Positions 23,765-62,690 of a DNA stretch of 64,000 nt are shown here, one piece after another. Origin of the DNA: Sclerodactyla briareus. Lineage: Eukaryota; Echinodermata; Holothuroidea; Dendrochirotida; Sclerodactylidae. The stretch is from assembly GCA_026419785.1 (NCBI GenBank), contig JAODTK010000500.1, forward strand, positions 62,001-126,000, given 5' to 3'. The notes beneath the pieces are model-generated. The model did not search any database. It was not told the DNA's origin and saw nothing but the letters and a program-made list of their open reading frames with translations. Numbering within the stretch: position 1 is the first letter of the stretch; each line of letters begins with the position of its first letter. The translations under genes and the position numbers were made by a program.

Positions 23765-23858
23765 TGCTAACCCTGCGCACGTGGTCTGAATGGCGGGTCT
23801 GGCTCTAACGGCACGGCGTTGCCTGTGTCTCCGGTTCAGCGGTGACATTTGTGAGCAG
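23765..23858 (+). CDS. Receptor tyrosine phosphatase gene: EGF-like exon
   Basis: Probable exon of the large plus-strand receptor gene. It lies between an acceptor (TCTCTTCCGTAG, ending 23764) and a donor (GTATGA at 23859). The frames read an EGF-type module: AACCCTGCGCACG for N-P-C-A (one base out of frame), then GLNGGSGSNGTA-like wording, CLC and FSGDICEQ at the end. EGF modules in this receptor type sit between Ig domains and extend the ectodomain. The frame shifts near the first cysteine and again before FSGD, both one-base events. This is the most upstream exon of the gene that can be supported. The start codon and signal peptide were not found. Confidence 0.55.
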
Positions 23859-24121
23859 GTATGAATGAAAGGCTCGCTTAAGCACATGATAGATTTGTTG
23901 GCAATTATTTTGAGTTGATTGATATATTACCACTCCTTTCTATAAAAAGTAGGAAACAATGGATCACTGCCATGATAGTTATATTAATAATCGAAATACA
24001 GCAGTATTATTTGTAACTTGGAGAGTGATAAGGACTTGAATTACTTTCTTTCTTGTTGGTTCCAGAGGAATTCCTACATTCTCCTATTAATGAGGACAGA
24101 GGAAAGTACCACCACCTTCAG

Positions 24122-24373
24122 TTAATTAATGCCTTTCCAGATCAGGCGCGCCTCTACTATGCCCGAAGGAGAGAGCATCCTTCTCCAATACTTGGTTTTA
24201 ATTAATATTACTGATAAGATATGGGGCGATATTAAATATACTAACCGCCCAGTTTCCTGTTTTGTGATAGCGCCTCTAACGATGTCCGCCAAGATTTGGA
24301 CTGAGATACATTGAATAATTGTAACAATTGTTTCGAAGCCTCCAAAGCAACTATAATTCCACATATGAACCAA
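24122..24373 (-). other. Unrecognised open frame in intron
   Basis: Open for 83 codons on the minus strand, with a plus-strand overlapping frame of 61 codons. No family resemblance. Probably chance. Confidence 0.15.
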
Positions 24374-24949
24374 AAAAGCTGATGTTATAAGAGTGATAAG
24401 TAAGACTCTCTAATCGCCATATTGCCTAATGCCATTTTTTGTATGAGATCGGAATTGGACATTCCATATATATTGACTCTAGCGCAGCGAAGAGACTTGA
24501 TCAAAGCTGTATAATTGTCACAATAAAAAACTAAACCAGTTCAGGAAACTGGGAGTGAGAGTGCGCAACAGCAATATCAAGAAAAATATACGCCTTATGG
24601 TCAATCAGGCACCCGGTAGGTCACCAAGGAAAGAGAAGGGAATGCGTTTTGTCGGTAATTCACTTTAGTATCAGCTGTACATTGAGAGCTTACGGACCAT
24701 TTGTTGCGATCTCAAATATAAAAATAATGTATCAGATAATTTACGGTTGAACACATAGGTGTACAAAACTAAGGCGGGGTAAGACTTCCCCCAAGTTCCT
24801 GGAGAACTGAAAAGTCGGTCAAAATTCTCTACGGAAGTCGAGGCAGATTTCCAGGCAAGTTACATAGCTCGATGAAAGAACATACGGGATGAAGTAGTGC
24901 CCTACTGAATTACTTGTTTGTAAAGTACAAACCAAGCGGGTTACTGCTG

Positions 24950-25240
24950 ATGAGCACATCATGTACCCAGCTATTCAGGCTGAATGAATGCCACCCCGAG
25001 CAAATGACTGAAGAAGGAGTTGTATTAACTTGTCAAAAATGTCAAACAGTGGATGAAGGGTAACCGTCTCAAAATCATTGATGACAAGTTGTCAGGTGAT
25101 AAATTTCTTGATTCTACCATCCAGCCACTTCGAAGAATTAAAAATTCACTGTAAAGCTCTAATATGGCCGTTACTTGTGTCTAAATCCCTTCATATCCAG
25201 CCTTCCGCCCTTTCGACAACTAAATTGTTGGTCTGAATAC
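24950..25240 (+). mobile_element. L2-type LINE fragment, copy 1
   Basis: The plus-strand frames give QWMKGNRLKI-like wording (about 25048-25072), DDK, and DSTIQPLRRIKNSL (about 25112-25150), followed by 'SSNMAVT'. These match the 'WM..N.LKLN.DKTE' and 'I.P...V.NLGV.FDS...' blocks of L2-type reverse transcriptases. The fragment closely resembles 25430-25830, so the two are a duplication or two insertions of one family. Truncated at both ends. Confidence 0.6.
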
Positions 25241-25429
25241 TGTAACAGGTTCGCACTATGTACAACAATAGTACAATACGTTCGGGATTGACCTGTTGAT
25301 CCGAATTGTTATCAGACCTTTTAGCAAATGCTTCAGTGTTTGCAGCTGCGGCATCATCAGAGAAAACAACTGTCCTACAGGTAGTTTAAAGTTCGGATAT
25401 ATTTTACTCACTACTTTCTACTCAGGTCT

Positions 25430-25830
25430 TAGTTACTCATATTAAGGAAGATTAAAGCACAATTGAGTATGCTGATGATCACAGCATCGACACTATTTTT
25501 TGGGCTGATCATTCAGAGCGAATGGCTGAAAGATGTTCTGTATTCACTTCGGATAATGTTAAGCAGCGAATGAAAGGTAACTGTCTCAAAATGATTGTTG
25601 AGAAATTGTCGTTTTCAGTAGCAAACAAAAAGTGGGACTAACAGCTACCTCGCTAGTGATGCTATTGGAAATCGCTCAGACTAATACTACGATATTCTCT
25701 CAGTGGATATTGCACAATCTCCTGCTAGCTCCTGATTCTACCATCCAACCACTAAAAAGAATTCATACTTTACTGCCACCGTCCTACTTGGTTTACTCAT
25801 TAGCTTTCTTTCTTTCGATCAATTAGGCTT
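25430..25830 (+). mobile_element. L2-type LINE fragment, copy 2
   Basis: It begins with 'STEYADDHSID' (the YADD catalytic box, about 25466-25495). RMKGNCLKMIVEK (about 25571-25610) follows, then DSTIQPLKRIH (about 25733-25768). About 105 bases not present in copy 1 separate the last two blocks. The element is broken and lies in an intron of the receptor gene. Confidence 0.6.
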
Positions 25831-26527
25831 TATTTCTATATTTCCTGTTTCTTTGTCCATTTATCAAAACGATGCGGACGGGGAAAATTTGTGTGAGCGT
25901 TGGAGGGGTCACAAGCAACGGGGTCATGTCCTACCTCCGTACCGAGTTTCGGCAAAATCTCCATTCGTTTCCCGAAGGACGACATGTGGGTGGGTCGATT
26001 CATTGACTTCTGTGTGACTGTGTGTATGGGTGTAGGGCCTGTTCGTAGACAACTCACCATAGCGTCGAGACCAAGCAGTTCCGTAGTTCAGCCAACCATG
26101 TATCATGTCATGTCAGCTAGCATACACGTATGATGTTTGCTCATTGGCTATCTGTTCGTATTGTGGGATTAGTGTTTGTGTCAGTCCGTAGAGTAATACT
26201 ACACACAATACATATAACTTCGATGTTGTGTTGACAGTTAATCGGAGCAATTGTGACATATTCTTTCCTACGGAAAATACGGATTGGAATGTGGTTACAT
26301 TTTATGCCAAGATGGGGCCACAGAAGGAAAATTCCTGTAACAATATATATTTTATTAGTTAGACTGAACAACTACGACATGATCAAAAATGACTAGAAGG
26401 TGATTGCAATTTAGCAAGACTCTAGCTTTTTTCTGCTGGTGCAGTATCATCTTAGTACACAATAAGGCTCTTTAGCCATGTAGTTTATTTTGTATCGCCT
26501 TCTCTACCATTTCGCTACGACTATCAC

Positions 26528-26910
26528 TAGGGAGCGTTAGATTTCACGACGGCAATCGTCAACGGCAACGTTGACCGAGGAAAAACCTACTGCGAATAGC
26601 TACAACCTCACTACTGGCCGTACAACGTCGATTCACGACGGGAGTCACCACTTTTCACGTTGTCCCTACGACTTGAACGTGAACCTAGCGCCGCATCATC
26701 CAACAGGCTAAACAATGGAACTCGGGAATTTTAACCGTCATACTCGAAACGCGCGATCGCAAAACGCGCGCATCTACTCACGCAACTGGCACATTGACAC
26801 GTCGTAGAAACTAAAGCTCCCTTACTCAGGACGGCGACGGGTCCTATACAACGTGAAAATGACGTCAGACGTTGCCGTTGCCGTCGCGTTGTGAATGCTA
26901 AAGCTACTAT
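26528..26910. mobile_element. Foldback MITE with imperfect terminal inverted repeats
   Basis: The left end TAGGGAGCGTTAGATTTCAC, followed by GACGGCAA and GTCAACGGCAACG, is mirrored at the right end. The reverse complement there reads TAGCTTTAGCATTCACAACG, then CGACGGCAACGGCAACG. An inner pair, CACTTTTCACGTTGT (about 26648-26662) and ACAACGTGAAAATG (about 26849-26862), extends the foldback. The interior has no coding frame. The GC-rich, CG-containing sequence stands out from the AT-rich surroundings. This fits a non-autonomous DNA transposon; the superfamily is not assigned. Confidence 0.7.
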
Positions 26911-27370
26911 TGCCTGGATGCGGTACGCGAATTGCCAAAGCCGTATACTCTCCTCTCAACGTACCCAGCCTACGGATCAAGATTAGAGCTTAGATGAACT
27001 CATTTATTCATTACATATCAGTTCGTGGCGACGTCTTCTTAATCTTACTTGGAGTAATTCGAATGCGATCTCCCAAACATAGGGTATGTGCACAAAGGGT
27101 TCACTCAACATGATTTTCTGTCATACAGAACATTATTCAAGTTCAGTGAACTTAAAAGGTTCCAGACACAAAGATACCTCAGATTATCAAGTTATCCCAA
27201 TAGCGTTGAGTTTTACGTGTAAGAACCCGTTGATTCAAATTATATAAAAAAAAATAGGAAGAGGATTGAATTGCTATTGAACTAAATTATTCTGGGGCTC
27301 ATTGTATTATCGTGGTTCAAATTCTACGCGTCGATCCTTATTGCAAAATAATCTCTGTTCATCTCGGCAG

Positions 27371-27525
27371 TCCATGGTAGAAACGTCTTCGGATGGAATG
27401 CTGATATAAATGTACTCCAGATGGTGGATGAGAGGGATTCCGGTTTCAGGAGCAATGGTCTACGTCACCCTGCCCCACTTGGCTGCATGTGCCCTGCAGA
27501 TTTCACGGAATAAACTGCAGCACCG
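27371..27525 (+). CDS. Receptor tyrosine phosphatase gene: Ig-end / EGF-start exon
   Basis: The acceptor is TTCATCTCGGCAG (ending 27370) and the donor is GTAAGT at 27526. The first half reads SSDGML in one frame and MVDERDSGF in another. The latter resembles the 'D.DSG.Y.C' turn before the last strand of an Ig domain. The second half reads HPAPLGCMCPADFTE, then a one-base shift, then C-S/A-P. 'GCxCPADFTG.NCS' is a common start of EGF modules after an Ig domain in Tie-like and phosphatase receptors of echinoderms. Strong splice sites make an exon likely. Two or three one-base frame changes lie inside it. Confidence 0.6.
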
Positions 27526-28821
27526 GTAAGTGAAATTTACATTCCGTAGGCCCTGGTCACTGTCGGTTTATTATGCGCGAACCCTCGCAACAAAACAATA
27601 ATATATGCGAGCTTTCCATAAATCATATTCTGTTTGATTCATTTCAATAAAGCACTCGGAAAATACCCACTGATCATAAAAAAACTAGTTTGCCTGAATG
27701 TCGTGATAATATACGTGTTTCCATGCAGCTGATGCGTGTTTTCGTTTTTCTCATTGGATACTGCCAGTCTGCCAGGGAGTTTCGAACCTATCCGAGGTCA
27801 CATGTTTAGACCTGCATGGATACGGGCCCTTTTTTTGCAATCTGCAAATTTTCCATGAAGTGCGCTGAATAGGAGCATGTCTCTAACACCGTACTTCAGT
27901 GCTGTGTACTCCTTGCTTTCTCCCTGCGCGCCTAGCGAGGAGACGTCAGGTACAATTTTGGAGCTTTTTGTATGGGCACGATCATGATTCAGACCACGAT
28001 CTTCCGGGACGTAAGACGACGCGTCGACGCCTGATAAGCTGAGCTAAACTCTCAATCAATAAATATTGCTGGGTCGTATATGTCATTTCAACAGAGGGAG
28101 AGCTCCCCTAAACCCCCCTACTGTCAAAACGCAACAAAATGACTTAAAAGGGAACGTGTAGAATACATTATTGAAGTCCTACTTCATATTGAAATAAAGA
28201 GAGAGGGGAAAAAACACATTACGTGCAGTGTCAAACTTCTAAATAGAATTGCGAGCACACCTCGTATAACGTATTACCAGTAGAACAACATTTCAATTAA
28301 TTACGTTCTATGATACTATTCGGCTTTCAAGTTGGTTTTGGGCTGGGTCGTCGTCGTGTCTGTTGGGCACAAGGTTACAAGTTGATCATATCAGACCATG
28401 ACGCCAAGCTGGGGTGGAGGACAGTCCTTGCGCGCCTCGGCGTTATTCACGCGAAGCTCTTGAACCTCAGCTGTATGCAGTGACGCTCAGTGATGCGTGA
28501 CGTAATCACGCTGCGAGTGTGGCATAATTGTCATTTGCTTTCATTAATGCCGAAAAAGCGAGAAAGCGTTGCAGAGTGTGTTGAAGCGCACATGTACGTC
28601 ACTGGATTGTCGCCAACTCATAGGACACTCGGCGCCCACTGGTAACTGGTAACTCATTTTGATATCACCTATATATAAATATGAAAACCTTCCCCTGGGC
28701 TCAATGAGTGCCTTGCACTTGTGGTCTGTAAATCATTCACTCACCTTTTTGAAATATTAAAACGCATCAATGGTCATTGACACCTTCGTCTCTCCAAGAT
28801 ATGAGATGTTATCTGCTTTTT

Positions 28822-28966
28822 GCCTGTTGTGAATGTCCCGAGGGAAAATTTGGTTCCAACTGCGCACAGGACTGTCACTGCAGTGGAAGCGATGTTCATG
28901 TGAACATATACTGGGTGTGTGCAGCGAGAAGGTTGAAAATAGATGGCAAGGGGAAAATTGTCAAAA
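28822..28966 (+). CDS. Receptor tyrosine phosphatase gene: EGF-like exon
   Basis: The plus-strand frame reads CECPEGKFGSNCAQDCHCSG followed by SDVH. After a one-base loss at the next cysteine codon (near 28897-28900), it reads GVCSEKVENRWQGENCQK in the adjacent frame and meets a strong donor GTAAGT at 28967. Eight cysteines in laminin/MEGF-type spacing identify an EGF-like module of a receptor ectodomain. The acceptor is not clear: a T/C-rich stretch at 28812-28826 lacks the expected AG directly before CCTGTTGTGAATG, so the start is approximate. The match to the 'CPEGKFGSNC' family wording is the strongest sign that this gene is real. Confidence 0.78.
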
Positions 28967-30365
28967 GTAAGTATAGAACAGTCTTAACAATTATTTTATA
29001 GGCAGGCAAACGGAAGTATTGTCAACGCACTGCCCCACAGGTACCGATGAGATATCGCAGTTACTTTATATTAACTGATGTCGTGATGTCGTTGCCATAG
29101 ACACGTATGCGTGGGTAACATGGGTGACGAGGAACTCAGTATTGACCTAAACGAAGTAAACTTGTTATGCATTGTTCCTCTCAAATCCGATACCTCAACC
29201 CACCTTAATAGATGAGGCTACTACTTGCTACGTGTGCTTCCCGTGATGAGCCCTTATTATGATGCGTTGTACTTTTGGTGTTTAACTTGCTTAGGTTTGT
29301 TCCGGGCTATAAAGTTGTTGGTATAGGTAGGATTGGCAGGTCCGAGTGGAATAGCCTATATTGGTATGTCTGTTCCCTACAATGATACATGACGCCTATC
29401 GTCAGATGAGTGCAACAGAATCGGAATTGGAAAACTCGAATTGGAAGTTCACTGTGTATTCTGTCTACGATGAACAATGTAGGAGCCCACTGCACTTAAA
29501 TAACCTTTGACATTTGGGTAATTTTTTGCCTTAGTCAACTCCAATTTAGCTCCCTTGAATTGGGGTTCATGATGAAGGAAATTAAGTTTGGTGAAACCTG
29601 CAGCTGTTACCTATTTTTTTTTACCCTCGAAGGTCTTTGTAATGTGGCGTTGGTGGTTTTACACATTAATAGTGTTCAATTCAACTGGCGAATTAATTTC
29701 CCGAATTTACTATTCGAACTGTCGATTGATATCACGTACTAAGTACTGTGCGAAGTGTAAAAAAAAAAAATATATGGTATCTATCTATGGAATCGATTAA
29801 ATGTTGAATAATTAACTATTCAAGTGGACAATAATATCGACTTAAATAACAACATGGTTGGCTAATAAGAAAAATTTCATTCTGGGGAAAAAACGGAATT
29901 TTCTGTCCTTTATTATCTAAATCTACTTTCAATACACATGCTAAATTGCATTACTCTGTAACGGTTGCAAGAAGAGTGGACAAATAATGACACTTCCTGC
30001 ATTAGATTTTTTTCCCAAAAAAGGTAGGTACGATTGTCTGTGTTGTAGCCGAATCGATGCCTTCGACCGCGATGCGCTTTATACCCATATAGTATTTTCA
30101 CTGACCTGAGCCAATGTTCCCACGTTGTGAATGTTATTGTGTATGCCGAATTGATTGTCCACCGAACTCACAACATTTTTGTCTTCCCTAGGGCCGTACA
30201 TTCGAATTCCATTAACAAAAATGAATGGCGAAAATGTGTTTATATCCTTTTTTCGTTATCCTTCTATGAGTCCATTGGAGCTTTATGATCTAATCGGTTT
30301 TCTTCTACGGCTCCATAGATGAACAACAAATGCATATTGTTCTTGTGAAATTATCTCTATTTCAG

Positions 30366-30505
30366 TACGGGTTTGTGAGATAGCAGTGTATGGGGCATAC
30401 TGTGCAAAAAGGACTGTTCTGTACCTGCTGACGACTGCAGCGAACTCGAATACTTTTGTAAGAGTGGATGTACCGAATCCTGGGTAGGAGAAGCATGTGA
30501 TAAAG
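30366..30505 (+). CDS. Receptor tyrosine phosphatase gene: EGF-like exon
   Basis: The acceptor is CTCTATTTCAG (ending 30365) and the donor is GTAACG at 30506. The exon reads VCEIAVYGAYCAK, then after an A5 run (30406-30410) shifts frame to DCSVPADDCSELEYFCKSG and CTESWVGEACDKG. The cysteine spacing is that of an EGF-like module, continuing the one in the exon at 28.8 kb. The frame change lies exactly in the homopolymer and is equivalent to one missing or two extra A's, as expected from a sequencing error. Exon edges and reading otherwise agree well. Confidence 0.75.
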
Positions 30506-30981
30506 GTAACGATTAATCTCATATGAAGATAGGAATCAAATTACTGGAGAGTGTTTACCATAATGATTTATCAGTCCATATTTCTTATATATATGAAGAA
30601 ACAACATTAGCCTCTCATGAGTCGGACTTTATATTAAATTAGTTACTGGTACACGATTGACATTTTGTGCTTAGAATGTGGACATGATATCCATATGATA
30701 CCACTTAGCTCATGGCTTCATATTTTTTTACCAGCTTCATACTCACATAACTTGTGTTTGGAGAATATCTACCCAAGGCGCAGTCGTAAGCTCAATATAA
30801 GTTCACGCAAGAAATGCGGTGTAACCTACCACGGGCACAAACTCTGATGTCAGCAGTTTCGAGACATGATTGATACATTTGGGCAGGTCAATTGTTCTTT
30901 GGATCTCATATTTAGGCCAGCTTGTGCTATAATCCTCAGAAAGTATTAATTTATAAACTGTTGTGATATCTTCCGTCACAG

Positions 30982-31252
30982 ACGGGTCGGGTCGAATCGA
31001 CCAGTTCAGCTATGAAAGAGTAAACCCCGATTGAACACTACCATTGAATGCTCTGTCATAAAAAACCCGTGGTGAATGAGACCGGCATTGTATTGGAAGG
31101 TTTGAAAGGTACATCCAGTTCAAGCCAGATAGACAATAGAGGATATAACGTGACCAAACTGGCAGTGTGAATCCGGAAATCTGCCAGTGGAAGTCCCATG
31201 CTATGTGACTTCGATTGACATCACTGAACAACAAAGCTCATGGAACCCTATG
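30982..31252 (+). CDS. Receptor tyrosine phosphatase gene: Ig-like exon
   Basis: The acceptor TCTTCCGTCACAG ends at 30981 and the donor GTGAGT begins at 31253. In successive frames the exon reads FSYERVNP, NTTIECSV (first Ig cysteine), NETGIVLEGLKGTSSSSQID, NRGYNVTKLAV, then EVPCYVTSIDITEQQSSWNPM (second cysteine). This is the length and layout of one Ig-like or FN3-like beta-sandwich after the EGF modules. Potential N-glycosylation sites (NTT, NET, NVT) fit an extracellular position. About four one-base frame changes or stops interrupt it. Confidence 0.6.
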
Positions 31253-31259
31253 GTGAGTT

Positions 31260-33180: not shown

Positions 33181-33184
33181 TTCA

Positions 33185-33318
33185 TAGCTGATTGGTTAGA
33201 GCTGCGCGTACGCGACGCAAGCTGGTCTGCGGTTTTGAATCCGGTGGAGCCACGATCTTTCCATCCCCTCCAGATTTCCGCCTCTGTCTCTTCTCCCTCT
33301 CCTCTTCCCTCTCTCTCT
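33185..33318 (+). mobile_element. tRNA-derived SINE
   Basis: An A-box-like GATTGGTTAGAGCTG (33189-33204) and B-box-like GGTTTTGAATCC (33229-33240) lie about 35 bases apart, as in a tRNA head. A pyrimidine-rich body (CTGTCTCTTCTCCCTCTCC) follows and runs into the AT array. This is typical of tRNA-headed SINEs. It has no anticodon-stem integrity and is not called as a tRNA gene. Confidence 0.55.
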
Positions 33319-33362
33319 GGATATATATATATATATATTATATAATATATATATATATAGAT

Positions 33363-33426
<64 letters not shown>

Positions 33427-33460
33427 TATTATATATATATATAGATATATATATATAATA

Positions 33461-33495
<35 letters not shown>
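33319..33495. repeat. (AT)n array, left of Penelope-like element
   Basis: About 175 bases of TA repeats with regular ATTATA, AATATA and TAGATA interruptions. Part of a pair with 35211-35370 that brackets a Penelope-like element. Confidence 0.9.
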
Positions 33496-35170: not shown

Positions 35171-35210
35171 CTTTGACAAGTCCTGTGTGGTGCGTTGCCA
35201 GGGAACAGGA

Positions 35211-35292
35211 TATATATGTATATATATATATATATAATATAAGATATAATATATATATAGATTATCTATATATATATATATAAGATATAATC

Positions 35293-35325
<33 letters not shown>

Positions 35326-35328
35326 GAT

Positions 35329-35361
<33 letters not shown>

Positions 35362-35370
35362 TATATATAC
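35211..35370. repeat. (AT)n array, right of Penelope-like element
   Basis: About 160 bases of TA repeats with TAAGATATAAT and TAGATTAT interruptions. Similar in type to the left array. Confidence 0.9.
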
Positions 35371-35399
35371 CTCTCACCTAGTTGATTGTGTGTGGACGG

Positions 35400-39526: not shown

Positions 39527-39817
39527 CGGACCAACCGGTGAACCGGGAACCGTCGAAGTGTTCGTCGTTAGTTCAAATCCAGTTACAATGACACTATGGG
39601 GAGCACCTTCGTGTGATTCATGGAAGGTGAAATCATTCTATTCTGTACATTACGAAACGATGGTACCAATGTTCAAACGGATTTGACACCATTGAACAAT
39701 ATCACAATCGATGGTCTTACCCCATACACGGAGTACTCATTCACTGTGGCGGCAAGGTCAGAGGCAGGCTCTGGCCCAGAAAAAGCACTGTGGTGACGGA
39801 AAAAACGGCGGAGGATG
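39527..39817 (+). CDS. Receptor tyrosine phosphatase gene: fibronectin III exon
   Basis: The acceptor ATGTTCTCAATGGCAG ends at 39526 and the donor GTACAG starts at 39818. At 291 bp this is the length of a single-exon FN3 module. It reads TGEPGTVEVFVVSSNPVTMT followed by LWGAP (strands A-B). SFYSVHYE (strand C) follows, then after frame changes DLTPLNNITIDGLTPYTEYS followed by FTVAARSEAGSGPEKA. The tyrosine and 'GL.P.T.Y...V.A....G.G' pattern are the hallmarks of FN3. The phase at the 3' end leaves a split codon (GAG GAT G). Three or so one-base changes interrupt the frame. Confidence 0.82.
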
Positions 39818-46672: not shown

Positions 46673-46786
46673 GAACAGGTGTTTACTATCGTGACAGCAA
46701 GACCTACAGTGGCTATTATAACGCACCATTACAATCTAATGTGGATTACAGAATGTATGTTTGCCCGTGGAAGCAAAGTACAGGAG
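46673..46786 (+). CDS. Receptor tyrosine phosphatase gene: membrane-proximal FN3 end exon
   Basis: The acceptor AAAAACGAACAG (ending 46672) and donor GTGAGC (46787) enclose an uninterrupted frame: VYYRDSKTYSGYYNAPLQSN followed by VDYRMYVCPWKQSTGG. The pattern 'GDGKTYGGYYNAPL....DY..Y' is characteristic of the last FN3-related segment before the membrane in receptor tyrosine phosphatases. It recurs in PTPRM/K/T-type and related receptors and is the second-best family marker in this gene. The exon is free of frame changes. A start at 46679, using the next AG, is also possible. Confidence 0.75.
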
Positions 46787-50047: not shown

Positions 50048-50141
50048 ATACCCCTGGTGGTCTATTGGGCTATTTTGGCCATTGTCGGGCTTGGGGATTG
50101 TATTAGTAATCATCGTTTCGTATCCGTGTTCTCTATAGAAG
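50048..50141 (+). CDS. Receptor tyrosine phosphatase gene: transmembrane exon
   Basis: The acceptor TCTTTACAG ends at 50047 and the donor GTGAGT starts at 50142. The exon reads PLVVYWAILAIVGLG, then after a G4 run (50093-50096) continues in the next frame as IVLVIIVSYPCSL. Together this is a hydrophobic helix of about 20 residues followed by a Ser/Tyr/Cys-rich start of the cytoplasmic side, the expected position between the FN3 stalk and the phosphatase. The single-base slip lies in the G run, again as in a sequencing error. Only one membrane segment is present, fitting a single-pass receptor. Confidence 0.7.
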
Positions 50142-51860: not shown

Positions 51861-51871
51861 TTCTCATGTAG

Positions 51872-51996: not shown

Positions 51997-52009
51997 GTAA
52001 TAAATAATC

Positions 52010-54500
52010 ACAGCTTTACTTAGTCCCGCAGACGAGACTCTTATTTATCATTCAGTTACATCTAATTCAATGATGATGTTAGAACTGCCATTGTCTGCTA
52101 TTTTCCCACATTCATTTCTCGCTTGATTGAAACAAGTTCGCTGGTAATCAATAAGTATTTACTAAGGGTATGTATTGGTGGGTGCGGTTGGTTCAGCATT
52201 CGAGGAAAATCCAAGTTAGTGTGTGTTATGGATGTGTGTGTGGTTCGATTGCGCGGACGTCGTCGAGGTTATTCATTCACGGATTTTCCTGATTTGCCGA
52301 ACGTTTAACATTCGCATTTAACACAAGACTCGAGAGTCACAAAGTTTAATGTTTCCAATAACCGATTTATTAGCGAAAACGTTTGCCTTTTTTGCTCTCA
52401 CATGACCATTCTTTGATGGAACTTCACTAGACTCGTATATACCCATTCATTGGCAAGTGGGACATCCTTGTTTGTGAATGGAATCATAACGTCCTTCAGC
52501 AGTGCGGCTTAAAGCATGTTTGCAAAATTTACATAAAATGTCATTTTAGACATGCATAGGGTAATTTTTATGCTAAATTGGACATCTCTCCCATGATTCT
52601 TTGGAGATAGAGGAAATCTGCCCTGATCGCCAGTGAACCATCCCCCGAAGGTCTACTATAGGCCTGTGTGTTTTATGGACTTCACATTTACTAAGTGTGG
52701 CTGTCTTCAGTCTAGGAGTCTCCAGCATCTATCCTCCAAACGGTAGGCTGGTCTTGATTGACTTGTAGAAATAACGAAAAAAAATCACCATGACGAATGT
52801 CAGATTTTCTTGAAATCGTGTTATAATGGACCTGGGTTGGAGGTCTGTCAGCTTGTTCGCAGATTTTGGATGCTATGCAATATAATGTCATTAGAGTCTC
52901 GACTAAACAGTAAAATTCGGTGACCAACACGTATTACAGGAGAGCCCCAAATAGCCATTTGACTTTCGTCGATTTGAACTAAAGTGAACAATGTCAGTGA
53001 CCATAGGTCAATGGTCATATTAAAGCGGGCACGATGGGCAAATTGTGTGAAATGGTTTTTTTCACCCCAGTTCATCGTTCTTTGATGGAGTGAAGTTCAA
53101 TATCAATGTCATGTTCATCACCGATATGTGAAATTGCTCTTTTTGCCACATTTGGTAATCGTTTGATGGATGTTGACTAGACTAAGTTACAATTCCTATT
53201 GACTGCTGAGGCATTTCTAATCATGCGAAGTTCAAGGTCGAAAGTCGAAGGAGAGGGACACCATAAGCCCTTGTGTTTAATGTTTCCAGATGGCCATTTT
53301 TCATTGAATGTTGATTGAACATAAGTACAAGTCTCTTGATCTGGTGATCATCCAATGAGTAAATGTCGAAGGTCATTGAAGGGCATTGTGTTGTTGAAGC
53401 TGTCGTTTAAACCCCCCCCCCCCATTTGATCATTCTTCATTCATGGATGTTAACCAAACGTGGACACAATATTGATTGTTGCGACATCTTCGGCCATGAA
53501 AAGGACAAGGGCCAAAAGGTCATTAAAGGGTCTCAATAAGCTATTGTGGTTTGGTCTGCCGAGTTGGTTGCATTTTTCGTTTTTTGATTTGGATTTTTCG
53601 TTGTACGCGAAGTTAGTTAGACCTTCATTATTAACTGATAGGCATCGATGGCATGTTAAAGGTCAATAAAGGATTCACATTGGACCACCAATTGGTCATT
53701 CTGTGATGGATTTGTACCAAATTTGCCTAGCTGCAGCTCATTGGTGCCATTCTTCAAATTGATGTAACCAGATGAAACGTCACAACATACAACTCAGGCG
53801 AGGTTTCCCCACAGTGTTTGTTTTTGAGGGAAAAAAATCATTTCTAGTTGAAGTTTGAGGTTTTCGACAAGAAATTCCGGCAGATTTGAATTTCGCTGCT
53901 CATTTAAAATTTTATATGACGGTAGATTACTAAAAACGTAAAAGTAAGCGTAAACACAGGTCAGGCCAAATGGGGGACCGTACGAGTGCATTTATGGCAC
54001 ACTCCCTAATTTCTGCTTCTTCCATTTGCATCATTACCAAGCGACCAACTCTTGCAAGGACTGTGCCAGAGAAACCGGAAAACCCAAGTTAAAAAACCGT
54101 ACGGCAACATTCTCCCGTGTAGGCCGCGATCACGACATGTAACTGTATTCAGATAGTACATGCACTACTCATGGTCTTCTTTTGAGCTGTTATAGAGATT
54201 ACAAAATATCAATAATGTGATGTGCACCCCTGTGCATTATGAGCCTGGGTGGAATACGGGCGAGTGTTAGCTTCTACGACATTGCCGGAGTTTTAAAAAT
54301 TGATATTAACTCATTAAGTACTATGTGGTAAATTTTGATTACTGAAAATATCACACCCCGAGAGAGAGTATTTTTTGTTCAACTCAACTCACTGTAGCAA
54401 ATTATACCGCAGAGCCGTTGTAACGAGTTGCCTCATTTGATACATGTATGAAATGAGGAGGAGTCCTTTACTTAGGAAAACATCACAAAACAAAACAAAA
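52010..54500. other. Intron with degenerate repeats
   Basis: Includes the tandem-like array at 52.4-53.75 kb, listed separately, and unremarkable AT-rich sequence. The frame 52123-52308 is not recognised. Confidence 0.4.
52400..53760 (+). repeat. Degenerate tandem array, unit about 135 bp
   Basis: The phrase 'CATTCTTTGATGGATGTTGACCAAAC' recurs in altered form near 52407, 53080, 53160, 53300, 53432 and 53695. AGGTCGAAGGTCA-like words lie in between. This is a typical decayed minisatellite of marine invertebrate genomes. A C run at 53411-53424 lies inside it. Confidence 0.6.
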
Positions 54501-54554
54501 ACAAAACAACACAAATGGACACCATTCTATAGTGATAAGAATAGTACGAGAATC

Positions 54555-54636
54555 GTCATTATTGAAGAATCAATTAATGTGGCCTTCGTACCGATTGACT
54601 TAGAGAGCGTTATAATCAAGCACGACTCCCGAAACA
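54555..54636 (+). CDS. Receptor tyrosine phosphatase gene: possible exon at start of catalytic domain
   Basis: A donor GTAAGT at 54637 follows an open frame, VAFVPIDLESVIIKHDSRN. This would align with the '...NK.KNRY.NI' stretch that opens the phosphatase domain, immediately before the next exon 90 bp downstream. The acceptor is not clear (an AG near 54528 is possible). The conserved Asn-Lys-x-x-Asn-Arg is only loosely matched (HDSRN). The left edge is approximate. Confidence 0.45.
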
Positions 54637-54727
54637 GTAAGTAACTGAATCGTTTAATGCGGAAAAAACTAGTTCTATAGTTGCTGTATTGACTCTCATT
54701 AACGACATTTTTTGTTCGTTTTCGCAG

Positions 54728-54809
54728 AGTGACAATTCCCCTCCCGGTCGTTCTTGAAATTGAATACGATGACCCACACTCGGCTTACTTCAACGCTTCC
54801 TACATAGAT
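54728..54809 (+). CDS. Receptor tyrosine phosphatase gene: catalytic-domain exon (YINASYID block)
   Basis: The acceptor TTCGTTTTCGCAG ends at 54727 and the donor GTAAGT starts at 54810. The exon reads PLPVVLEIEYDDPHSAYFNA followed by SYID in an open frame. 'V.L......Y.NA.YID' is motif 1 of classical protein tyrosine phosphatases, next to the substrate-recognition loop, and identifies the family firmly. It ends in phase 0 exactly at the aspartate before the Gly-Tyr of the next exon, the normal boundary in animal PTP genes. Confidence 0.85.
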
Positions 54810-55544
54810 GTAAGTACATAACATATCACATTCCTCCTCCAATTTTCAGACAGCTCTGGGGCTTTGTTGTACTGACGGATGTTCTTTTGTTAATTTCGAT
54901 GGCCCAGTGGAATATACGTTAATTTGATTTTTTTCTATTCATTACATGCCTGGCAACAAAACCCCCAAACGCTTGCACGCTTTCAGGGGTCCGATAATGC
55001 ACAACCCCCTTTTTCAAAAAATTTTCGCATTGTGACTCACGTAGAAATAACGTGGGGGCCCCGTAATACACAGTGAATGCTAAAAACTGTACTTCGAAAA
55101 CCAGTAACGAGCGAACTAAATCGGGTCCAAATGAAAACTTACCGTATCGTTCCCAAGTATGAAACAATGAACCCATTCATCTTCGAGAATACCTATTTGA
55201 TTCTTCTGTTACGAAGGCGCGAAACTAACAGCGTTTTTTACTGTTATAGTCTACAGGCGGCCTTCGCACTGGTCCCCGTGACGTCAAATTCATAGTTGGG
55301 TTGAAAAACCCCACAGGGTGTCATATGCCCATTGACCTTCTCAATTAGACACTTTTACTTATTTGAGTAGGCCGCTGATCGATTCCTCCTAAACAACTCA
55401 CATATATCCATCACATTGAAAACAAAGTGTTTGGGACTCCCATTGGATAAACATATCAATTCTATTTTCCTCCTCGTCTAAAAAATGCTATTTACCATGC
55501 AATCATTACTTAACGCCTCCAATTTCTCGTTGCATTTTAGACAG

Positions 55545-55583
55545 GGTTATAAAGCTTCCCAAGAATTTATATTGCCTGCCACG
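55545..55583 (+). CDS. Receptor tyrosine phosphatase gene: short catalytic exon (GYKASQEFI block)
   Basis: The acceptor GCATTTTAGACAG ends at 55544 and the donor GTATGT starts at 55584. The exon reads GYKASQEFI and then, with a small insertion, an A-C-H-G in place of the usual ATQG. It joins the preceding exon in phase 0 (YID|GYKA) and ends on the first base of a glycine codon, so that the next exon supplies GP. A 39-bp exon at this site is usual in animal receptor PTP genes. Confidence 0.78.
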
Positions 55584-55914
55584 GTATGTATCTACCACCT
55601 CCGCCCACACCTCATTATGTGTGCTCATAACACGTTTGAATAATTTCTGTTAGCCGTCATGCCAAAATGAAAACTCTGCGTACATTTTCGGGTACTCTTC
55701 CGACAATTTGGGTCGTCTGTTCTTCGCACATATCAACCTCAACTCAAAAAACGCTTTCTTCTCGACTAGTGCCCAGAAGAAATTGTCGAAAGTTCTAAGT
55801 GTCTCTTAAGTCTGCCGGAGAGCGCTCATTCAGATTCACAGCCCCAGTGGTATGAAATTCGCCGCCCTAACAAAGATTCGTGATTTTCATGTTAATATCT
55901 CACCCTGACAAAAA

Positions 55915-56090
55915 AAAAAATTCTATAGAATTCTATAGAAGTGTCTGTAGAGTTCTATCGGCTCTATAGAAAATGTCATTTTTCTATAAATTGAGTCTCA
56001 ATTTTTCTATAGAATTCATAGTTTCTATAGATTTCTTTAAACATTTTTCTAATAAACGTTGTAATCAGTAGTCCACTCTATAGATTCTTT
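55915..56090. repeat. Cluster of TTCTATAGAA palindromes (left)
   Basis: TTCTATAGAA and close variants (CTATAGAA, TTCTATAAA, TTTCTATAG) occur about ten times in 175 bases. Confidence 0.75.
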
Positions 56091-56124
56091 TTCAAACTCA
56101 AAATTTGAAATCTAATGCAATTGA

Positions 56125-56180
56125 TAATAATGATGATGATAATAATCATATATAATAATAATAATCAAGAATAATAATAA
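56125..56180. repeat. (AAT)n/(GAT)n microsatellite
   Basis: AATAATGATGATGATAATAATC and ATAATAATAATAATCAAG units. Confidence 0.8.
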
Positions 56181-56296
56181 AGTTGCGTTGCAAGTGAAAG
56201 GCTAAAGTTGTGTGGGCTGCTATTAAGGCGTCCTGTTGCTCTTCCGGCTGGTTTCCCGAAGCTTGTTGCCGCTCACATGATAACGTCACATTTACT

Positions 56297-58000
56297 TTTT
56301 TTTTTTTTTTTTTTTAACAAGTTGAATGGGAAGGGCGAACCCTAATCGCCTAAAAAAAGGCAACCCCCAAGCACAAGGACTAAAAGAAAGGGAGAATCCA
56401 GCTTGTTGATTCTACTCTTAAGAAGAAACCCTGGAGTCAAAATCATGATGAAAACAAAAATACATCCCGAGGAAGCCTAATCCAGGCACGCGAAGTGCTA
56501 GGAAAAAAGGAGCGAGCATAGTTTCGGTGCGATGAAGTGGAAATCAACCGAAAACCGGGTGGCTGGAAGCAGAAGACGAGTATGGGCGATTACCCGATAA
56601 AGGATGAACACCTCCCCATCTCAGAAGACATTGACCATAAAAGTCACGGTAAAGTCGGCCGAGAGATGCTACAGATCTGCGATGGGATAGAGATTCAATT
56701 GAGGAGGTAAGATGAATCATCGTTGATGAGACGGATGCCTTCTCTGGATCGATCAAGTGACACTGAGAGAGGATGCGAGCCCCACCCCAAATATGGCACA
56801 TATTCTCATTAATTGATGCGAAATTTGGGCTTTGTAAGCAGAAGTAGCTGTTGTGGGGTGAGTATTTCCTTGTGCGGAATAAGAAGAAGCACAGCTTTCT
56901 AGAAGCATTAGTAGCGTTAGACTTGAATGGGGTTCCAGGACAGTTGTTGCCTGGATTTCCATACCAAGGATATTAAGAGAAAGTAGTACTGAGGGGAGGA
57001 GCTTCAGCCATGAAAATGCTGGTGCAATCAGAAACACGCCGACAGAAATCTCAAGTTCTGAGTTTTAGATGGTGAAGGTAACGCAGTACATTGCCCCCAG
57101 TTCAAAATAGAATGAAAGAATCATTGTTTCGCTGATTGGCACTATGGAATGTTGTAGTAAATCGTTCCGCTTGCCGGGGGCGACAGGAAAGCACAGAGAG
57201 TGGTGAAGGGTAAATCACAGCAATGAGTGAATACCATAGAAGGTAGAGCTAAGAAGATCATTGAAGGTATAAAATGAGAAAGAGTGTAGGAGAGAAACAC
57301 CAACTTGAGGACCCCAGCATGATGAGTTGGAAGGTACGGAGATGACGCACTCAACCCTAACAGAGATAGCGCGACGGTGAGAAAACTGGCAGTCAAAGAG
57401 TTAGAAGGGGGCTGAAACCAAATGAAGTTAATTGGGCAAGGGGAGTCCGGCGTGACCAAACACGTAAAGGCCTGGAGTATCAAGGGCAATAGGCCCTACT
57501 TCACGAAAAACTCAATGGCTTGGGCCCAAGTGGTGCCAAAAAAGATAGTAAGTCCCCAGTAGATAGGCCAGGCCGGAAACCATACTGGTGGTACTGATGA
57601 GAGAGTGAAACTCAAGAAAGTTCAAAACATGATTGTTTATTATAGTTTCCATAACGTTGGAGAGGACCGAGGTGATGGCAATAGCCTGTAATTGGAGGGG
57701 TTGGGATTGTCACCCTTTGTAGGGACTGGGCAGGACATGGTGAGACATGTTTCCACACTAGAAGGGTAGCATCCATAGAATAACAAAGGCGGTAAGCTTG
57801 CTAAGGGATAGGCGCAAGTAGGGGGCACACTCAGGAGGACTATAGGAGGATGCAATCAGGACCAGGATGCTTTATTAATAGTCTAAAAACTATTGAGGTT
57901 GGGACCTGATATCGGACCTGTTTTGCGGAACTGTTATTGATATCTGTATAATTAGCTGGGTACAATCACGTATCCATGACCCTTGATTCCATTTTTCTCT
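56297..58000 (-). mobile_element. LINE (Jockey/CR1-Daphne type) with poly(A) tail, minus strand
   Basis: Read from right to left, the order is PSSVETCLTMSCPVPTKGDN and NPSNYR (about 57780-57680), the reverse-transcriptase block 'FLEFHSLIS..QYGFRPGLST' (about 57640-57560), and a frame-shifted 'GVPQG.VLSPTLF' (about 57330-57290). The C-terminal 'YKAQI' and MCHIWGGA (about 56800) follow, then SLSHRRSVASLG (about 56690-56650) and a GRSTRYS-like end. The element finishes in a run of about 20 A's on the minus strand (T's at plus 56298-56316), the mark of target-primed retrotransposition. It is decayed, with frequent frame changes. It is inserted in the intron of the receptor gene in antisense orientation; 58000-58250 may add its upstream part. 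Confidence 0.82.
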
Positions 58001-58282
58001 CATGAAATTCCTTCAACTGAGAGGAGGAGCAAGTGCTGCACGGCCGGGTGGACGATAATTGGCGTTGACCATAATTTAACTGGCTGGAGGAGGAGTTGGC
58101 CAGAAAGGAAATCAGCAGTTATAGCCCACATCTTTTAAAACACACCCTCATAAGGTGTTTGATGACAGCGGGCTGACCACGTAGTAACGTCCCTCCTCTA
58201 ATGCCGTCACCCCTCAACGTTTTTCCACTTTTTAGCGCGCCGTGCCTGCCAGCTGTTACTTACTCTTGTTTTACATGTAACC

Positions 58283-58312
58283 CACCCCCCCCCCCCCCCA
58301 CACACACAACAC
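58283..58312. repeat. Poly-C and (CA) tract
   Basis: A C run of about 16 followed by CACACACAAC. Confidence 0.85.
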
Positions 58313-58507
58313 ATTCACCCAATTAAGAAAGGTAATGCTAAATAACAATAGTAAGAGAGATTTAGATATGTGGCATGCCAAAGATGTGTAGGTACCTTCT
58401 CTTCTGGGCTGTTGCTTTATCTTTCGCGAAGACTGACAATTTATATTCCTACTCTGGCATGAAAAATTGGAAATAAGAACTGCTTTTACTTATAACAAGC
58501 TTCCATT

Positions 58508-58552
58508 GATTTCCATAGAGTTTTCTATAGAACCTCTATAGAATATTCTGAG
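58508..58552. repeat. Cluster of TTCTATAGAA palindromes (right)
   Basis: GAGTTTTCTATAGAACCTC and TATAGAATATTC resemble the left cluster at 55915-56090 across the LINE insertion. Confidence 0.6.
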
Positions 58553-59613
58553 GTTGTCCTTTAGTCTTATCTAAATTGTAAGCCTCTTCTATTAATTATA
58601 ATACCATTCATGAATAATTGTTTTGTGATCTATAGTGAAATTGGTAGGCAAATTAGCCTTTATTATACATTATTTGAATTTTATTAACATTCCACGCGAA
58701 TTTGAATAATATTTAGTCAGATTAAAAAACAACACCAACCTGACGCAAGAACAGTTGGTGATTGACAGCCCTAATTTCAAATGCAGCGTGGCCAGTTAGC
58801 TCTGTAGTGCTGGATGTCAGCCATCCAGTCCAAATTGGTTTTTTGTTCAAGGAACATTGGATATTTATTGTAGACTGAACCATGAATTTATGTTTCAAGT
58901 TTGTCCATATTGGAATTATGATTGTTTCTATTTGTATCATTTTTTAATCATATTCAGAGCGCTGATTTTGGCGCCTTATCAAGACTTTCTTTATTAGTGT
59001 TATTGGTTATTATCATTATCACATTCTGCTGGAAATGTCACATGGTAAAACTCACGATGAGGGTACCGTCCTCCTGTTAGGTCTACGGCTTCCGTGTGTA
59101 CAACGCGTGCGTAGCTAACACACTTGAACTTGAATGGCCATAAATACAGTGCATAATAGTCAAATCGAGAGGTCAAGTGATTTCTTTCTGGGCTCGTTTT
59201 TTCTCATAATTCTATGGCCACACACATACAATTCATTGGTACATATTTAACTCTTGGGCAACACCACCTTTTCCGAATAAAAATGACCTCATCTGTGGCA
59301 GAACCCAGTATGGCCGATTAGAAGCATGTACTCAAACTTTCATCAGTCCAATATTTCAGATGACCGTGTTCACAGGAACCAATATTCAGTGTTCAAACGT
59401 CACAACCTATAAACTCAAAATCACGGGAACAATCATTCATTTGGCCCATTCTTTAGACCTGATCAATATATCGTGTTTACAAGTACTTATTATATAGACC
59501 ATACAGATCATACTGACGTAATCAACTATTTGTATCTTTGAAATAAAATATGTAGCTAAATGTTATATTTTGTATTAGCACCTTATTGTTCGTGTTTTAT
59601 TTTCCGGACTAAG

Positions 59614-59709
59614 GTCCACCCAGTTGTCTGTGGTTATTCGGAGAATGCTTTGGGCAGGAAAGACAGTTGTCAGGTTGTTATGCTCACCCCACTTGTCGAG
59701 GATAACAAG
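59614..59709 (+). CDS. Receptor tyrosine phosphatase gene: catalytic exon (DFWRMLW block)
   Basis: The acceptor TTTTCCGGACTAAG ends at 59613, and the first bases GTCCACCC complete a Gly-Pro codon pair with the previous exon (ATQG|P). The frames then give 'F' followed by WRMLWAGKT (about 59635-59668) and, one base on, QVVMLTPLVEDNKV. This matches 'DFWRMLWE....VVMLT.LVE..KVK', motif 3 of PTP domains. Two one-base shifts are present, near TATTCGG and at the cytosine in TTGTCAGG. The end is set at AAG before GTCGGT, a weak donor, and may be elsewhere. Confidence 0.72.
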
Positions 59710-59719
59710 GTCGGTATAC

Positions 59720-62510
59720 AGTTTCAAACAGATCTGCTTCAGTTACTTTTGAAAAGGGTGTTCTACGTGTTGTGGACAAAAGTTAACAATGAATGGAAGT
59801 TTGTCAAATCTCGAATATGATCAGTGCCATGCATAACCATTTGTAGAGTGCCAGATGTAAAATTTCTGTTCCAAGAATTAACTGTTCTTTCAATAACGTT
59901 TGACGAAACTGTTTTTTTTTTCTTCCTGAATCAGAGTAAGGCGTTTTAAGCCTCCGTCAGTATTAGTAAGTATTAGTATCCTAAAATTCGACTCATTACT
60001 TTTTGACAATTAGCCTCAGCTTTATACCAAAGGGAATGAAACTGATTAAAATTAGTAAGCAACTCTGTATAGGTGGGTTTATTGTATCACAGTGTTGATA
60101 CGCTTTATATTGTTACGATAAGAACGTTTAAGAGAAGGCACGACAATTTCGCTGTTTAATTTTATACTAGGCGCCAGTTGTTATTGAAATCGAAATTTCC
60201 ATTCACAACTACTTCAGTCTTTTTAATGAACGTGGACATTGTCGTCTCATAACAAACACTCCGCAAATAAACGGGTCGTTTTTGCTGCCCGCTTGTAAAA
60301 CGTTTGAATACACTCGGAATTATGGAAATAACGTATTTCACAACCCCCATCCCTCAATCCGAGTTCAAAACACCTCCCGTCTTTTTGTTATTTGCATCCA
60401 TAATTTATTGACATATTGTGTTGCATACCCAGCAATTTAACGAACGCTTCGTTTGCATGATTCTACAGCAGAACTATCGCATGGCGGGGGGCGGGTAGTC
60501 GCAGAATGTTTGAAACCAGCATAGATGGGGAAGGAAGCGTATTTTCAACAAACCCTATTTTCCTAAGTTCAAGCACATCCCTCTTTTGTGAAATCGCATT
60601 CACTCTAGACAATACAGAATGTCCGCACCCACCCAGCAATAACGAGCGCTTCCGTTGCATATATCAGGGCACGAAATATTTGCAACTCCGCCACGCAGCA
60701 ATAGCGGAACTATGTCCAGTGACACTATCCATTAGTGACGATGTGCAGTATTGATACTGAATTGCCTGAGAGTTTTCTCTTCATTGATTGTCATATCAAA
60801 AGGACGGCGTCGCTTTGTTTCGCGCCCCAGTTTGCAACCGACTTTATTCATTGATTCAGTTCATGCAGTGCAAATCAGAGGCACCTTGGTTGGTGATATG
60901 GGTTATTACAATATCCCAAAAATTCAAATCAGGAGTTCAAGCGGACGTTGCGCAAAAAACTCCGTGCCCACAAAATTGAATTTGGGTTCCAGTTATCGGA
61001 GCAAAAAAATGCGAAAAATATAACGTGATGTATGTTACGCACGTCCATACCCTGAGGAACTCCCCAGGTTTGGGGAAAGAGATTCTACCCTAGCCCACAC
61101 TCTCCAAATTTAGAGAGAACGGTTTCCCTCCCAGGGAGCCTATAGTCCTACTGAAATCGGGCAACTCGTCCAGGATCGGGTTAATATGTTCATCCCTGGT
61201 AGCCAGTAGGCCCGTGGAAGGGTTTTGTTTTTGGTAGGTTAGCTCCCATAATAACCTTACACAAATCCTGCCCTGAGGAATGCAAATACGTTGCTGACAG
61301 TCCTTTTGCGATTGTGTTACTCGCTGACTTGACTTGTAATATTGGAATAATCCTATCCGTCACCCCCCATCACACAGCCTAATCATGCGAATAAAATAAA
61401 TCCTAACGGGGAGAACACGCGAGATCCTCCTGGTAACGTACACTAACTTCCCGCGCAAACATGATCAGGCCTTCCCAAGATATTTTGAGGAACCCAACGC
61501 GCGCATTGGAATGTTGGCATACTCCCGTGGTTAGAAATTCATAGCCTAAAACTGTTAAGTTCGACGCGTATGTGATAGATACAATTGACTTTATTTCAGG
61601 AAACGTTCCTGGTCGAGAACCTGTACTATTCATAGGTGTTATTAAGTGAGAAACCGAACCACGCGCGGGTGTATTTCCTACTCATTCCAACGGAACGCAT
61701 TCCCTTGCAGGTCACATGTGTACAATCACTGGCCCGAATGACAAGAATGATGTTTTTTAAGGCAAATTTGTGGTGCTGTGCCAGCAATAGCGAGGACCTT
61801 CCCCACGTATACCCATCCGAAAATTTTGCAGTTTTACGGAGGTATGTGATTTGAAAATTATTGGACGTTGTACTATGAGCAACGGACCGTGCAGTGTTGG
61901 TATCAGTTGACGCTTTGCAAGCAGATATAGCGATTTTTCCGAGTTCCTTTAAAAAATACCGACTTTTTCTGCTCAGTTGGCTTATGTTTTTTTTGTGAAT
62001 TTTGCTTGGGTCCTTAGACTTCACCTCAGGTTTTGTTGCTGTATGCATTGGACGGTCGGACATTAAATCGTCCCTCTTTCGGGTGTCGAGAAAGGTGAAA
62101 GACGGATCCTGGATGCACTAAGCTTTTTCGAATGACACGTAAAATGGTGGGTTCCCATCTGCAGAGCTTGAAATGGAATTGCATGAATTACACCCCTGCC
62201 ATCAATATAACGAACGCGCCAGTTCACATAGACGACCAAACAACAGAGAACTTTGAAGGCTCTATTTGACACGTCCCGGACTCCCGTATGAATCGCATGA
62301 AGACGAGTTTGAATAGCCTTTTTCTTAGTGACGTCCCTGTCGAAAAAAATGATTTTTGAACTATCTTCATTACATTACTTTTCAACGAGGATGTACATTA
62401 ACCGTTTTTTTTTCTAGGGCTATCTGGTAATATATAGTTTTGGTAGTGGAATTTGTTGTGTGTATCAGTATATGTTTCTAATTTGTCAAATATCTATGTT
62501 AACATCAATT
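59720..62510. other. Intron or lost exons between catalytic blocks
   Basis: The segment encoding the middle of the phosphatase domain ('C..YWP...YG.....' and 'IR.F') was not found. A candidate frame at about 61776-61845 (SNSEDLPHVYPSENFAVLRR) precedes a GTATGT but lacks the C..YWP residues. Unrecognised minus-strand frames (62063-61626, 145 codons; 60660-60463) and a plus-strand frame (60506-60754) are present. T homopolymers lie at 59911-59920 and 62405-62414. Confidence 0.35.
61626..62063 (-). other. Unrecognised 145-codon open frame
   Basis: A basic frame on the minus strand: KSKDPSKIHKKNISQLSRKS and KYTRAWFGFSLNNTYE near the end. A further open frame, 62272-62063, joins it directly upstream on the same strand. 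No domain was recognised. Its length is unusual here. A transposon or retroelement remnant is most likely. Confidence 0.3.
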
Positions 62511-62517
62511 CCAAACA

Positions 62518-62690
62518 GGAAAAAAAGGGAAAGGTGCAAGAATGGTCACTCATTTCCATTTCACTGCTTGGCGGGATAGAGAAAGACCAGACTCTTCTCC
62601 GGGCCCTCTTCTTCCGCTTCCGAGTAATTTCTTAAAACTCGTGAGATCTACGAAGAGTAAACGCTCAGGACCACTGACCGTTCATTGTAG
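62518..62690 (+). CDS. Receptor tyrosine phosphatase gene: WPD loop to catalytic cysteine exon
   Basis: The acceptor TCCAAACAG ends at about 62518 and the donor GTGGAG starts at 62691. The open frame reads MVTHFHFTAWRDRERPDSSP followed by GPLL, LKLVRSTKSKRSGPLTVHC, and two bases (AG) of the next serine codon. 'VTHFHFTAWPDHGVP....GPLL' is the WPD loop; here its proline is Arg but the general-acid Asp is kept. 'PLTVHCS|AG' is the start of the HCX5R catalytic loop with the nucleophilic cysteine. Splitting the serine codon after its second base is the conserved intron site of animal PTPs. The exon's 5' A-rich part may hold a frame slip. The rest of the loop must lie beyond or further right. Confidence 0.86.

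What the first reader, a model, noticed from the sequence alone, without database searches (positions are those of the whole stretch)
23765..62690. A receptor tyrosine phosphatase gene spans about 39 kb or more with an Ig/EGF/FN3 ectodomain
Sixteen likely exons, all on the plus strand and in a sensible order, read EGF - Ig/EGF - EGF - EGF - Ig - FN3 - FN3 - (unknown) - membrane-proximal FN3 end - transmembrane helix - juxtamembrane - PTP domain pieces. Several junctions match in phase: YID|GYKA, ATQG|P, HCS split after two bases. MEGF-type EGF repeats combined with FN3 and PTP are not the vertebrate layout, so this is probably an invertebrate-specific expansion.
Basis: partly seen in the sequence, partly recalled or inferred. 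Interest (0 to 1): 0.75.

Follow-up and report, generated by a model that had tools for sequence, protein, structure and literature searches.

The report
Broken receptor tyrosine phosphatase gene
This stretch of animal-like DNA carries recognisable exons of a cell-surface tyrosine phosphatase receptor, but several of them are interrupted in their reading frame, so it is probably a decaying gene copy, or a real gene in an error-prone assembly, rather than a remarkable new receptor.

Summary
Three exons on the plus strand are well supported: fibronectin III (39.5 kb), a membrane-proximal FN3 of RPTP mu/U type (46.7 kb) and a PTP exon (62.5 kb). Five more PTP pieces (54.1 to 63.3 kb) are weak alone but colinear (chain 156.9; 12 shuffled windows 38.7-85.8), and two junctions match in phase (a third by eye). 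One EGF-like exon (28.8 kb) is clear against shuffles, one (27.4 kb) modest, two at background; none has an EGF match in Pfam. No Ig was found. Nothing links the EGF half to the FN3/PTP half except strand and order. As sequenced it cannot encode a working phosphatase. I favour a decaying gene copy, with an intact gene in a noisy assembly as close rival; I could not separate them, because no animal relatives or genome of the organism were reachable. Low interest.

The parts
23732..23858 (+). candidate EGF-like exon (weak); AG and GT edges present; read only with frame breaks
   Evidence: splice strings; profile scores 35.7-43.8 are at background; no EGF in Pfam
27371..27525 (+). EGF-like exon, TIE-receptor type, modest support, one frame break; AG and GTAAGT edges
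   Evidence: score 68.5 at 27430-27518, 8 shuffles 45.4-58.0; only 43.1 with the MEGF profile; no EGF in Pfam
28834..28966 (+). EGF-like exon of MEGF type, one frame break; donor GTAAGT at 28967, no clean acceptor seen
   Evidence: score 103.5, 8 shuffles 37.1-52.0; no EGF in Pfam, no convincing PDB match
30366..30505 (+). candidate EGF-like exon (weak), phase 1 at both ends by eye, read only with a frame break
   Evidence: splice strings; scores 32.5-42.1 at background; no Pfam or PDB match
39527..39817 (+). fibronectin type III exon; FN3-like stretches in three different frames, of which only the middle one is backed by Pfam
   Evidence: Pfam fn3 E 7.8e-8 on 39617-39793, none on the other two stretches; profile 74.4, 5 shuffles 37.1-50.2; frames
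46679..46786 (+). membrane-proximal FN3 exon, RPTP mu/U type
   Evidence: Pfam Fn3_PTPRU E 0.0037, below cut-off; PDB RPTP mu E 0.028; profile 70.4, 5 shuffles 38.9-41.6
50048..50141 (+). candidate transmembrane exon, hydrophobic in two competing frames
   Evidence: splice strings and frames read by eye; no Pfam match in this region
54072..54138 (+). PTP domain piece, profile 1-15 (to 54117) plus edge read by eye; two frame breaks
   Evidence: score 43.9, at background alone
54728..54809 (+). PTP domain piece, profile 21-41, frame intact
   Evidence: score 53.1, best of 5 shuffles 51.1; splice strings
55545..55583 (+). PTP domain piece, profile 42-54, one frame break
   Evidence: score 27.0, background alone; supported by position and phase only
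59642..59709 (+). PTP domain piece, profile 65-83, one frame break
   Evidence: score 54.0, best of 5 shuffles 51.1
62519..62690 (+). PTP domain piece, profile 133-179, frame intact; WPD loop reads WRDRERP
   Evidence: Pfam E 8e-8; PDB; score 106.7
63166..63336 (+). PTP signature-motif piece, profile 180-235; stop directly after AGVG; six frame breaks in the alignment
   Evidence: score 41.5, background alone; frames

Best explanation
A plus-strand, intron-bearing copy of an animal receptor-type tyrosine phosphatase gene that is no longer under constraint and is decaying. Its working relatives would be single-pass receptors: EGF and FN3 modules bind a ligand or neighbouring cell, a membrane-proximal FN3 and a transmembrane helix follow, and the cytoplasmic PTP domain removes phosphate from tyrosine (general knowledge of RPTPs; inferred here). 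This copy, as sequenced, would stop inside the PTP signature motif and has frame breaks upstream, so it should make no working receptor. That introns and splice sites are kept points to a gene duplicate or a gene dying in place, not a retrocopy. Shown: homology of the FN3 and PTP exons, order, phase-matched junctions, broken frames. Inferred: that the breaks are real mutations, and that EGF and FN3/PTP parts belonged to one gene.
For: Colinear PTP chain above all 12 shuffles; family matches; 10 frame breaks in 6 PTP pieces, 4 of 6 pieces broken, and 15 of 59 highly conserved positions changed, including WPD-loop P, G and V and the T and Q of ATQG; a stop straight after AGVG in the spliced frame; in-frame stops in my by-eye readings of the candidate EGF exons at 23.7 and 27.4 kb. 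Substitutions as well as indels are what neutral decay gives. Long homopolymers (20 T, 22 C, 17 G) are kept, which a homopolymer-compressing base caller would not be expected to leave (inference).
Against: 44 of 59 conserved positions kept (75%) is within the range of the seven reference PTP domains (64 of 92 to 77 of 84), so substitution damage is modest for so many indels. Several breaks look like single-base events in short homopolymers (by eye), as sequencing errors do. The AT arrays have many one-base phase slips. The frame-tolerant aligner can place spurious breaks in weak exons; of the 10 breaks, 9 recur when one penalty is used throughout, where the 55.5 kb piece was not listed.
Confidence: 0.48

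Rival explanations
1. An intact, working receptor PTP gene whose exons look broken because the assembly carries of the order of one indel error per hundred bases.
For: High ratio of indels to substitutions in the PTP pieces and short-homopolymer context of several breaks (by eye); one-base slips in AT arrays; the 66-chunk Pfam scan found no further cellular gene that could serve as a clean yardstick.
Against: Substitutions at 15 of 59 conserved PTP sites; long homopolymers kept; stops in candidate EGF readings not obviously tied to frame breaks (by eye).
Confidence: 0.35
2. Two loci: an EGF-rich receptor gene or fragment (23.7-30.5 kb) next to a separate FN3/PTP gene or fragment (39.5-63.3 kb), by neighbourhood or mis-assembly. 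This can be true together with decay or noise.
For: About 9 kb (30.5-39.5 kb) hold no exon that I could find with TIE, FN3, Ig or Pfam profiles; no vertebrate RPTP joins EGF to PTP (recalled).
Against: Same strand, sensible order, no other Pfam family seen between them.
Confidence: 0.15
3. A functional but catalytically altered receptor (pseudophosphatase) with a changed WPD loop. It overlaps with the noise reading.
For: The WPD exon is in frame yet reads WRDRERP; sea urchin RPTP sequences with WVD and WTD are reported (PMC5336234, passages read).
Against: Requires the frame breaks to be errors; the signature-motif exon has a stop after AGVG.
Confidence: 0.12

Closest known systems
R2B receptor PTPs (mu, kappa, U, T)
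   Same: membrane-proximal FN3 exon resembles RPTP mu/U; FN3 plus PTP
   Different: EGF-like exons upstream, no MAM seen; best PTP-exon match is RPTP sigma, not mu; no second PTP domain inside the window
R2A receptor PTPs (LAR, sigma, delta)
   Same: best solved-structure match of the PTP exon (sigma) and of the FN3 exon (RPTP F, whole-chain E 7.4e-11 but best single stretch only 0.25)
   Different: no Ig found, EGF-like exons present, degenerate WPD loop
TIE receptor tyrosine kinases and MEGF10-type receptors
   Same: EGF exon types: 28.8 kb MEGF-like, 27.4 kb TIE-like (profiles from recalled sequences); EGF before FN3 as in TIE (recalled)
   Different: cytoplasmic domain is PTP, not kinase; Ig not seen
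[quoted passage not shown]
   Same: WPD loop altered at P (WVD, WTD there; WRD here); passages read

Membership tests
Receptor-type PTP | PTP domain homology | tested here: met
   Pfam E 8e-8, chain 156.9 vs 12 shuffles 38.7-85.8
Receptor-type PTP | intact signature motif HCSAGxGR(T/S)G (recalled) | tested here: not met
   reads HCSAGVG then stop in the spliced frame, as sequenced
Receptor-type PTP | WPD loop | tested here: not met
   reads WRDRERP, in frame
Receptor-type PTP | open reading frame through exons | tested here: not met
   10 frame breaks in 6 pieces; stop in signature motif
Receptor-type PTP | transmembrane helix between ectodomain and PTP | tested here: inconclusive
   hydrophobic candidate exon 50048-50141, two competing frames, by eye
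R2B RPTP | membrane-proximal FN3 of mu/U type | tested here: inconclusive
   E 0.0037 below Pfam cut-off, PDB E 0.028, profile 70.4 vs at most 41.6 in 5 shuffles
R2B RPTP | MAM domain and tandem PTP domains (recalled) | tested here: inconclusive
   no MAM in the six-frame Pfam scan at E 0.05; the window ends before a second PTP domain could appear
TIE-like ectodomain | Ig plus three EGF plus Ig plus FN3 (recalled) | tested here: not met
   2 of 4 EGF candidates above shuffles; no Ig above control

The most novel reading that the evidence does not exclude
An expressed invertebrate receptor joins a TIE/MEGF-like EGF ectodomain with FN3 modules to a PTP domain whose WPD loop is degenerate, so that it could share ligands with TIE-type kinases while acting as a slow or dead phosphatase, a decoy counterpart of the kinase receptor.
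Probability: 0.08. Interest if true: 0.5.

Novelty: new member of a known kind. Interest (0 to 1): 0.2.

Why it matters
If intact copies exist, the EGF plus FN3 plus PTP layout would add to the known diversity of invertebrate receptor phosphatases. As it stands, it mainly shows that a plausible exon list read by eye can hide a broken gene, and that frame continuity must be checked before a gene is claimed.

Tried and rejected
Rejected: an Ig exon (Ig consensus profile best hit 34.6, below all 5 shuffles, and outside the claimed span; a single consensus is a weak test). A second FN3 near 41.2 kb was considered (scores 36.7 and 39.5) and left out because shuffles reach as high. PTP profile positions 84-132 were sought between 59710 and 62520 and not found above background. 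A chance PTP hit at 39688-39735 (45.2) scores above two of my PTP pieces and was dropped because it lies inside the FN3 exon. A whole-TIE match was at first my leading idea; with separate EGF units the 28.8 kb exon is MEGF-like and only the 27.4 kb exon is TIE-like. A protein database search with the PTP exon gave 4 candidates and no match at E 10; I infer that that database holds few animal proteins. Rfam (gathering scores) and tRNA scans found nothing. Homopolymer spectrum and AT and GT arrays were examined to separate decay from noise; they point both ways. The organism's own genome could not be searched: 10 of 10 identical requests did not complete. Papers: 5 searches; in the titles and abstract openings listed I saw no paper on an EGF-bearing RPTP of echinoderms (one search listed 12 of 17). 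Only PMC5336234 was opened, and of it only the 12 of 16 passages shown. I recall a 2006 survey of sea urchin phosphatases, which I did not see. The reference profiles are built from sequences and consensus strings that I recalled, so their scores are approximate; Pfam and PDB results are independent of them.
Full report
Observation. The window (64,000 bases, 41.4% GC, no N) looks animal-like: short exons far apart and microsatellites. A six-frame Pfam scan in 66 chunks found only four families at E 0.05 or better: Y_phosphatase, fn3, a DSCAM-type FN3 and a reverse transcriptase, each in one chunk, all on the plus strand; the other plus-strand frame and the minus strand gave none. So the receptor phosphatase is the only cellular gene that this scan sees; short exons can escape it.

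PTP domain. The exon 62519-62690 matches Pfam Y_phosphatase at E 8e-8. In the PDB, 211 distinct sequences match at E 1 or better (best 60 shown), the first being RPTP sigma at E 1.6e-8; that value sums two domains, and the best single stretch has 0.0007. Seven translated stretches covering the other five pieces had no PTP match in Pfam. A frame-tolerant alignment to a profile of seven PTP domains (recalled sequences) finds pieces in order at 54072-54117 (profile 1-15, score 43.9), 54747-54809 (21-41, 53.1), 55545-55585 (42-54, 27.0 in a local search), 59642-59700 (65-83, 54.0), 62539-62688 (133-179, 106.7) and 63164-63336 (180-235, 41.5). The best hits of 5 shuffles are 44.2-51.1 and of the minus strand 44.2, so only 62539 is strong by itself, two pieces barely exceed the shuffles and three do not. 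The best chain on the plus strand scores 156.9; it holds five of these six pieces (not 55545) plus two background-level hits at 61007 and 61802. 12 shuffled windows give 38.7-85.8 and the minus strand 46.5. Without the 62539 exon the chain would score 80.2, which 1 of 12 shuffles exceeds. With frame breaks forbidden the plus-strand chain is 129.8; I ran no shuffles for that setting. What also speaks for the weak pieces is that exon edges abut exactly in the profile (41|42 and 179|180).

Splice sites. AG/GT edges and phases agree at 54809|55545 (phase 0) and 62690|63166 (codon split after two bases); 54138|54728 also fits, but there I chose the reading by eye across a frame break. A phase match has a chance of about one in three each.

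Ectodomain. FN3 at 39617-39793 has Pfam E 7.8e-8 and profile score 74.4 (5 shuffles 37.1-50.2). The 46679-46786 exon looks like the last FN3 of RPTP mu/U (E 0.0037, below the curated cut-off; E 0.028; one search score 70.4 against 38.9-41.6 in 5 shuffles). EGF: 28834-28964 scores 103.5 with MEGF10-type units (8 shuffles 37.1-52.0). 27430-27518 scores 68.5 with TIE-type units (8 shuffles 45.4-58.0) but only 43.1 with MEGF units. The candidates at 23.7 and 30.4 kb stay at background. None of the four has an EGF match in Pfam; the 30.4 kb piece has no PDB match and the 28.8 kb piece only three weak ones, best E 0.4. No Ig domain was found. The transmembrane exon is a reading by eye.

Broken frames. 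In the six PTP pieces I count 10 frame breaks; four of six pieces are affected. In that call the break penalty was 10 for those four and 14 for the two intact ones; with 14 throughout nine breaks recur in three pieces, and 55545 was not listed. The exon that should hold the signature motif continues correctly from HC through S-A-G-V-G and then meets a stop; this does not depend on the aligner. The FN3 exon has FN3-like stretches in three frames (only the middle one is backed by Pfam). The EGF exons at 28.8 and 27.4 kb align with one break each. Of 59 aligned positions that are the same in at least six of seven reference PTP domains, 44 are kept and 15 changed, among them WPD-loop P, G and V; positions at gaps or breaks were left out. 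Controls, each reference left out in turn and judged over the whole domain on positions shared by at least five of the other six: PTPRA 75 of 83, PTPRK 75 of 82, LAR 77 of 84, PTPRB 72 of 86, SHP2 73 of 85, PTP1B 64 of 92, LAR D2 71 of 85. The window figure is favoured by the alignment's own optimisation.

Cause of the breaks. Decay explains indels and substitutions together, and long homopolymers of 17 to 22 bases survive in the window. Base-call noise explains why indels are so many for a modest loss of conserved sites, why several breaks seem to lie in short homopolymers (by eye) and why AT arrays slip by single bases. An altered WPD loop need not mean decay: sea urchin RPTP sequences with WVD and WTD are reported (PMC5336234, passages read). 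I put decay at 0.48 and noise at 0.35; a two-locus reading (0.15) and a functional pseudophosphatase (0.12) overlap with these.

What it is. Best filed as a damaged member of the receptor-type PTP family, with R2A/R2B-like FN3 and PTP exons and MEGF/TIE-like EGF exons upstream. It fails the tests for a working member (signature motif, WPD loop, open frame) as sequenced. Single-gene status across 39 kb is plausible but unproven: about 9 kb between 30.5 and 39.5 kb yielded no exon.

Noticed in passing
56547-57800, minus strand: Open pieces in shifting frames that read like the reverse transcriptase and 3' end of a LINE-type retrotransposon (by eye; not matched by Pfam at E 0.05 on this strand).
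   Followed up: no
plus strand, possibly about 9.2 kb: One reverse-transcriptase match (Pfam RVT_1, E 0.00078) in the plus-strand chunks; the place is my guess from the translation.
   Followed up: partly
33321-33495 and 35210-35369: Two long imperfect AT arrays 1.7 kb apart, with many one-base phase slips; arms up to 92% complementary, as AT repeats are by nature.
   Followed up: partly
48584, 58285, 63745 and others: Unusually long G or C homopolymers (22 C, 15 C, 17 G) scattered in the window.
   Followed up: no
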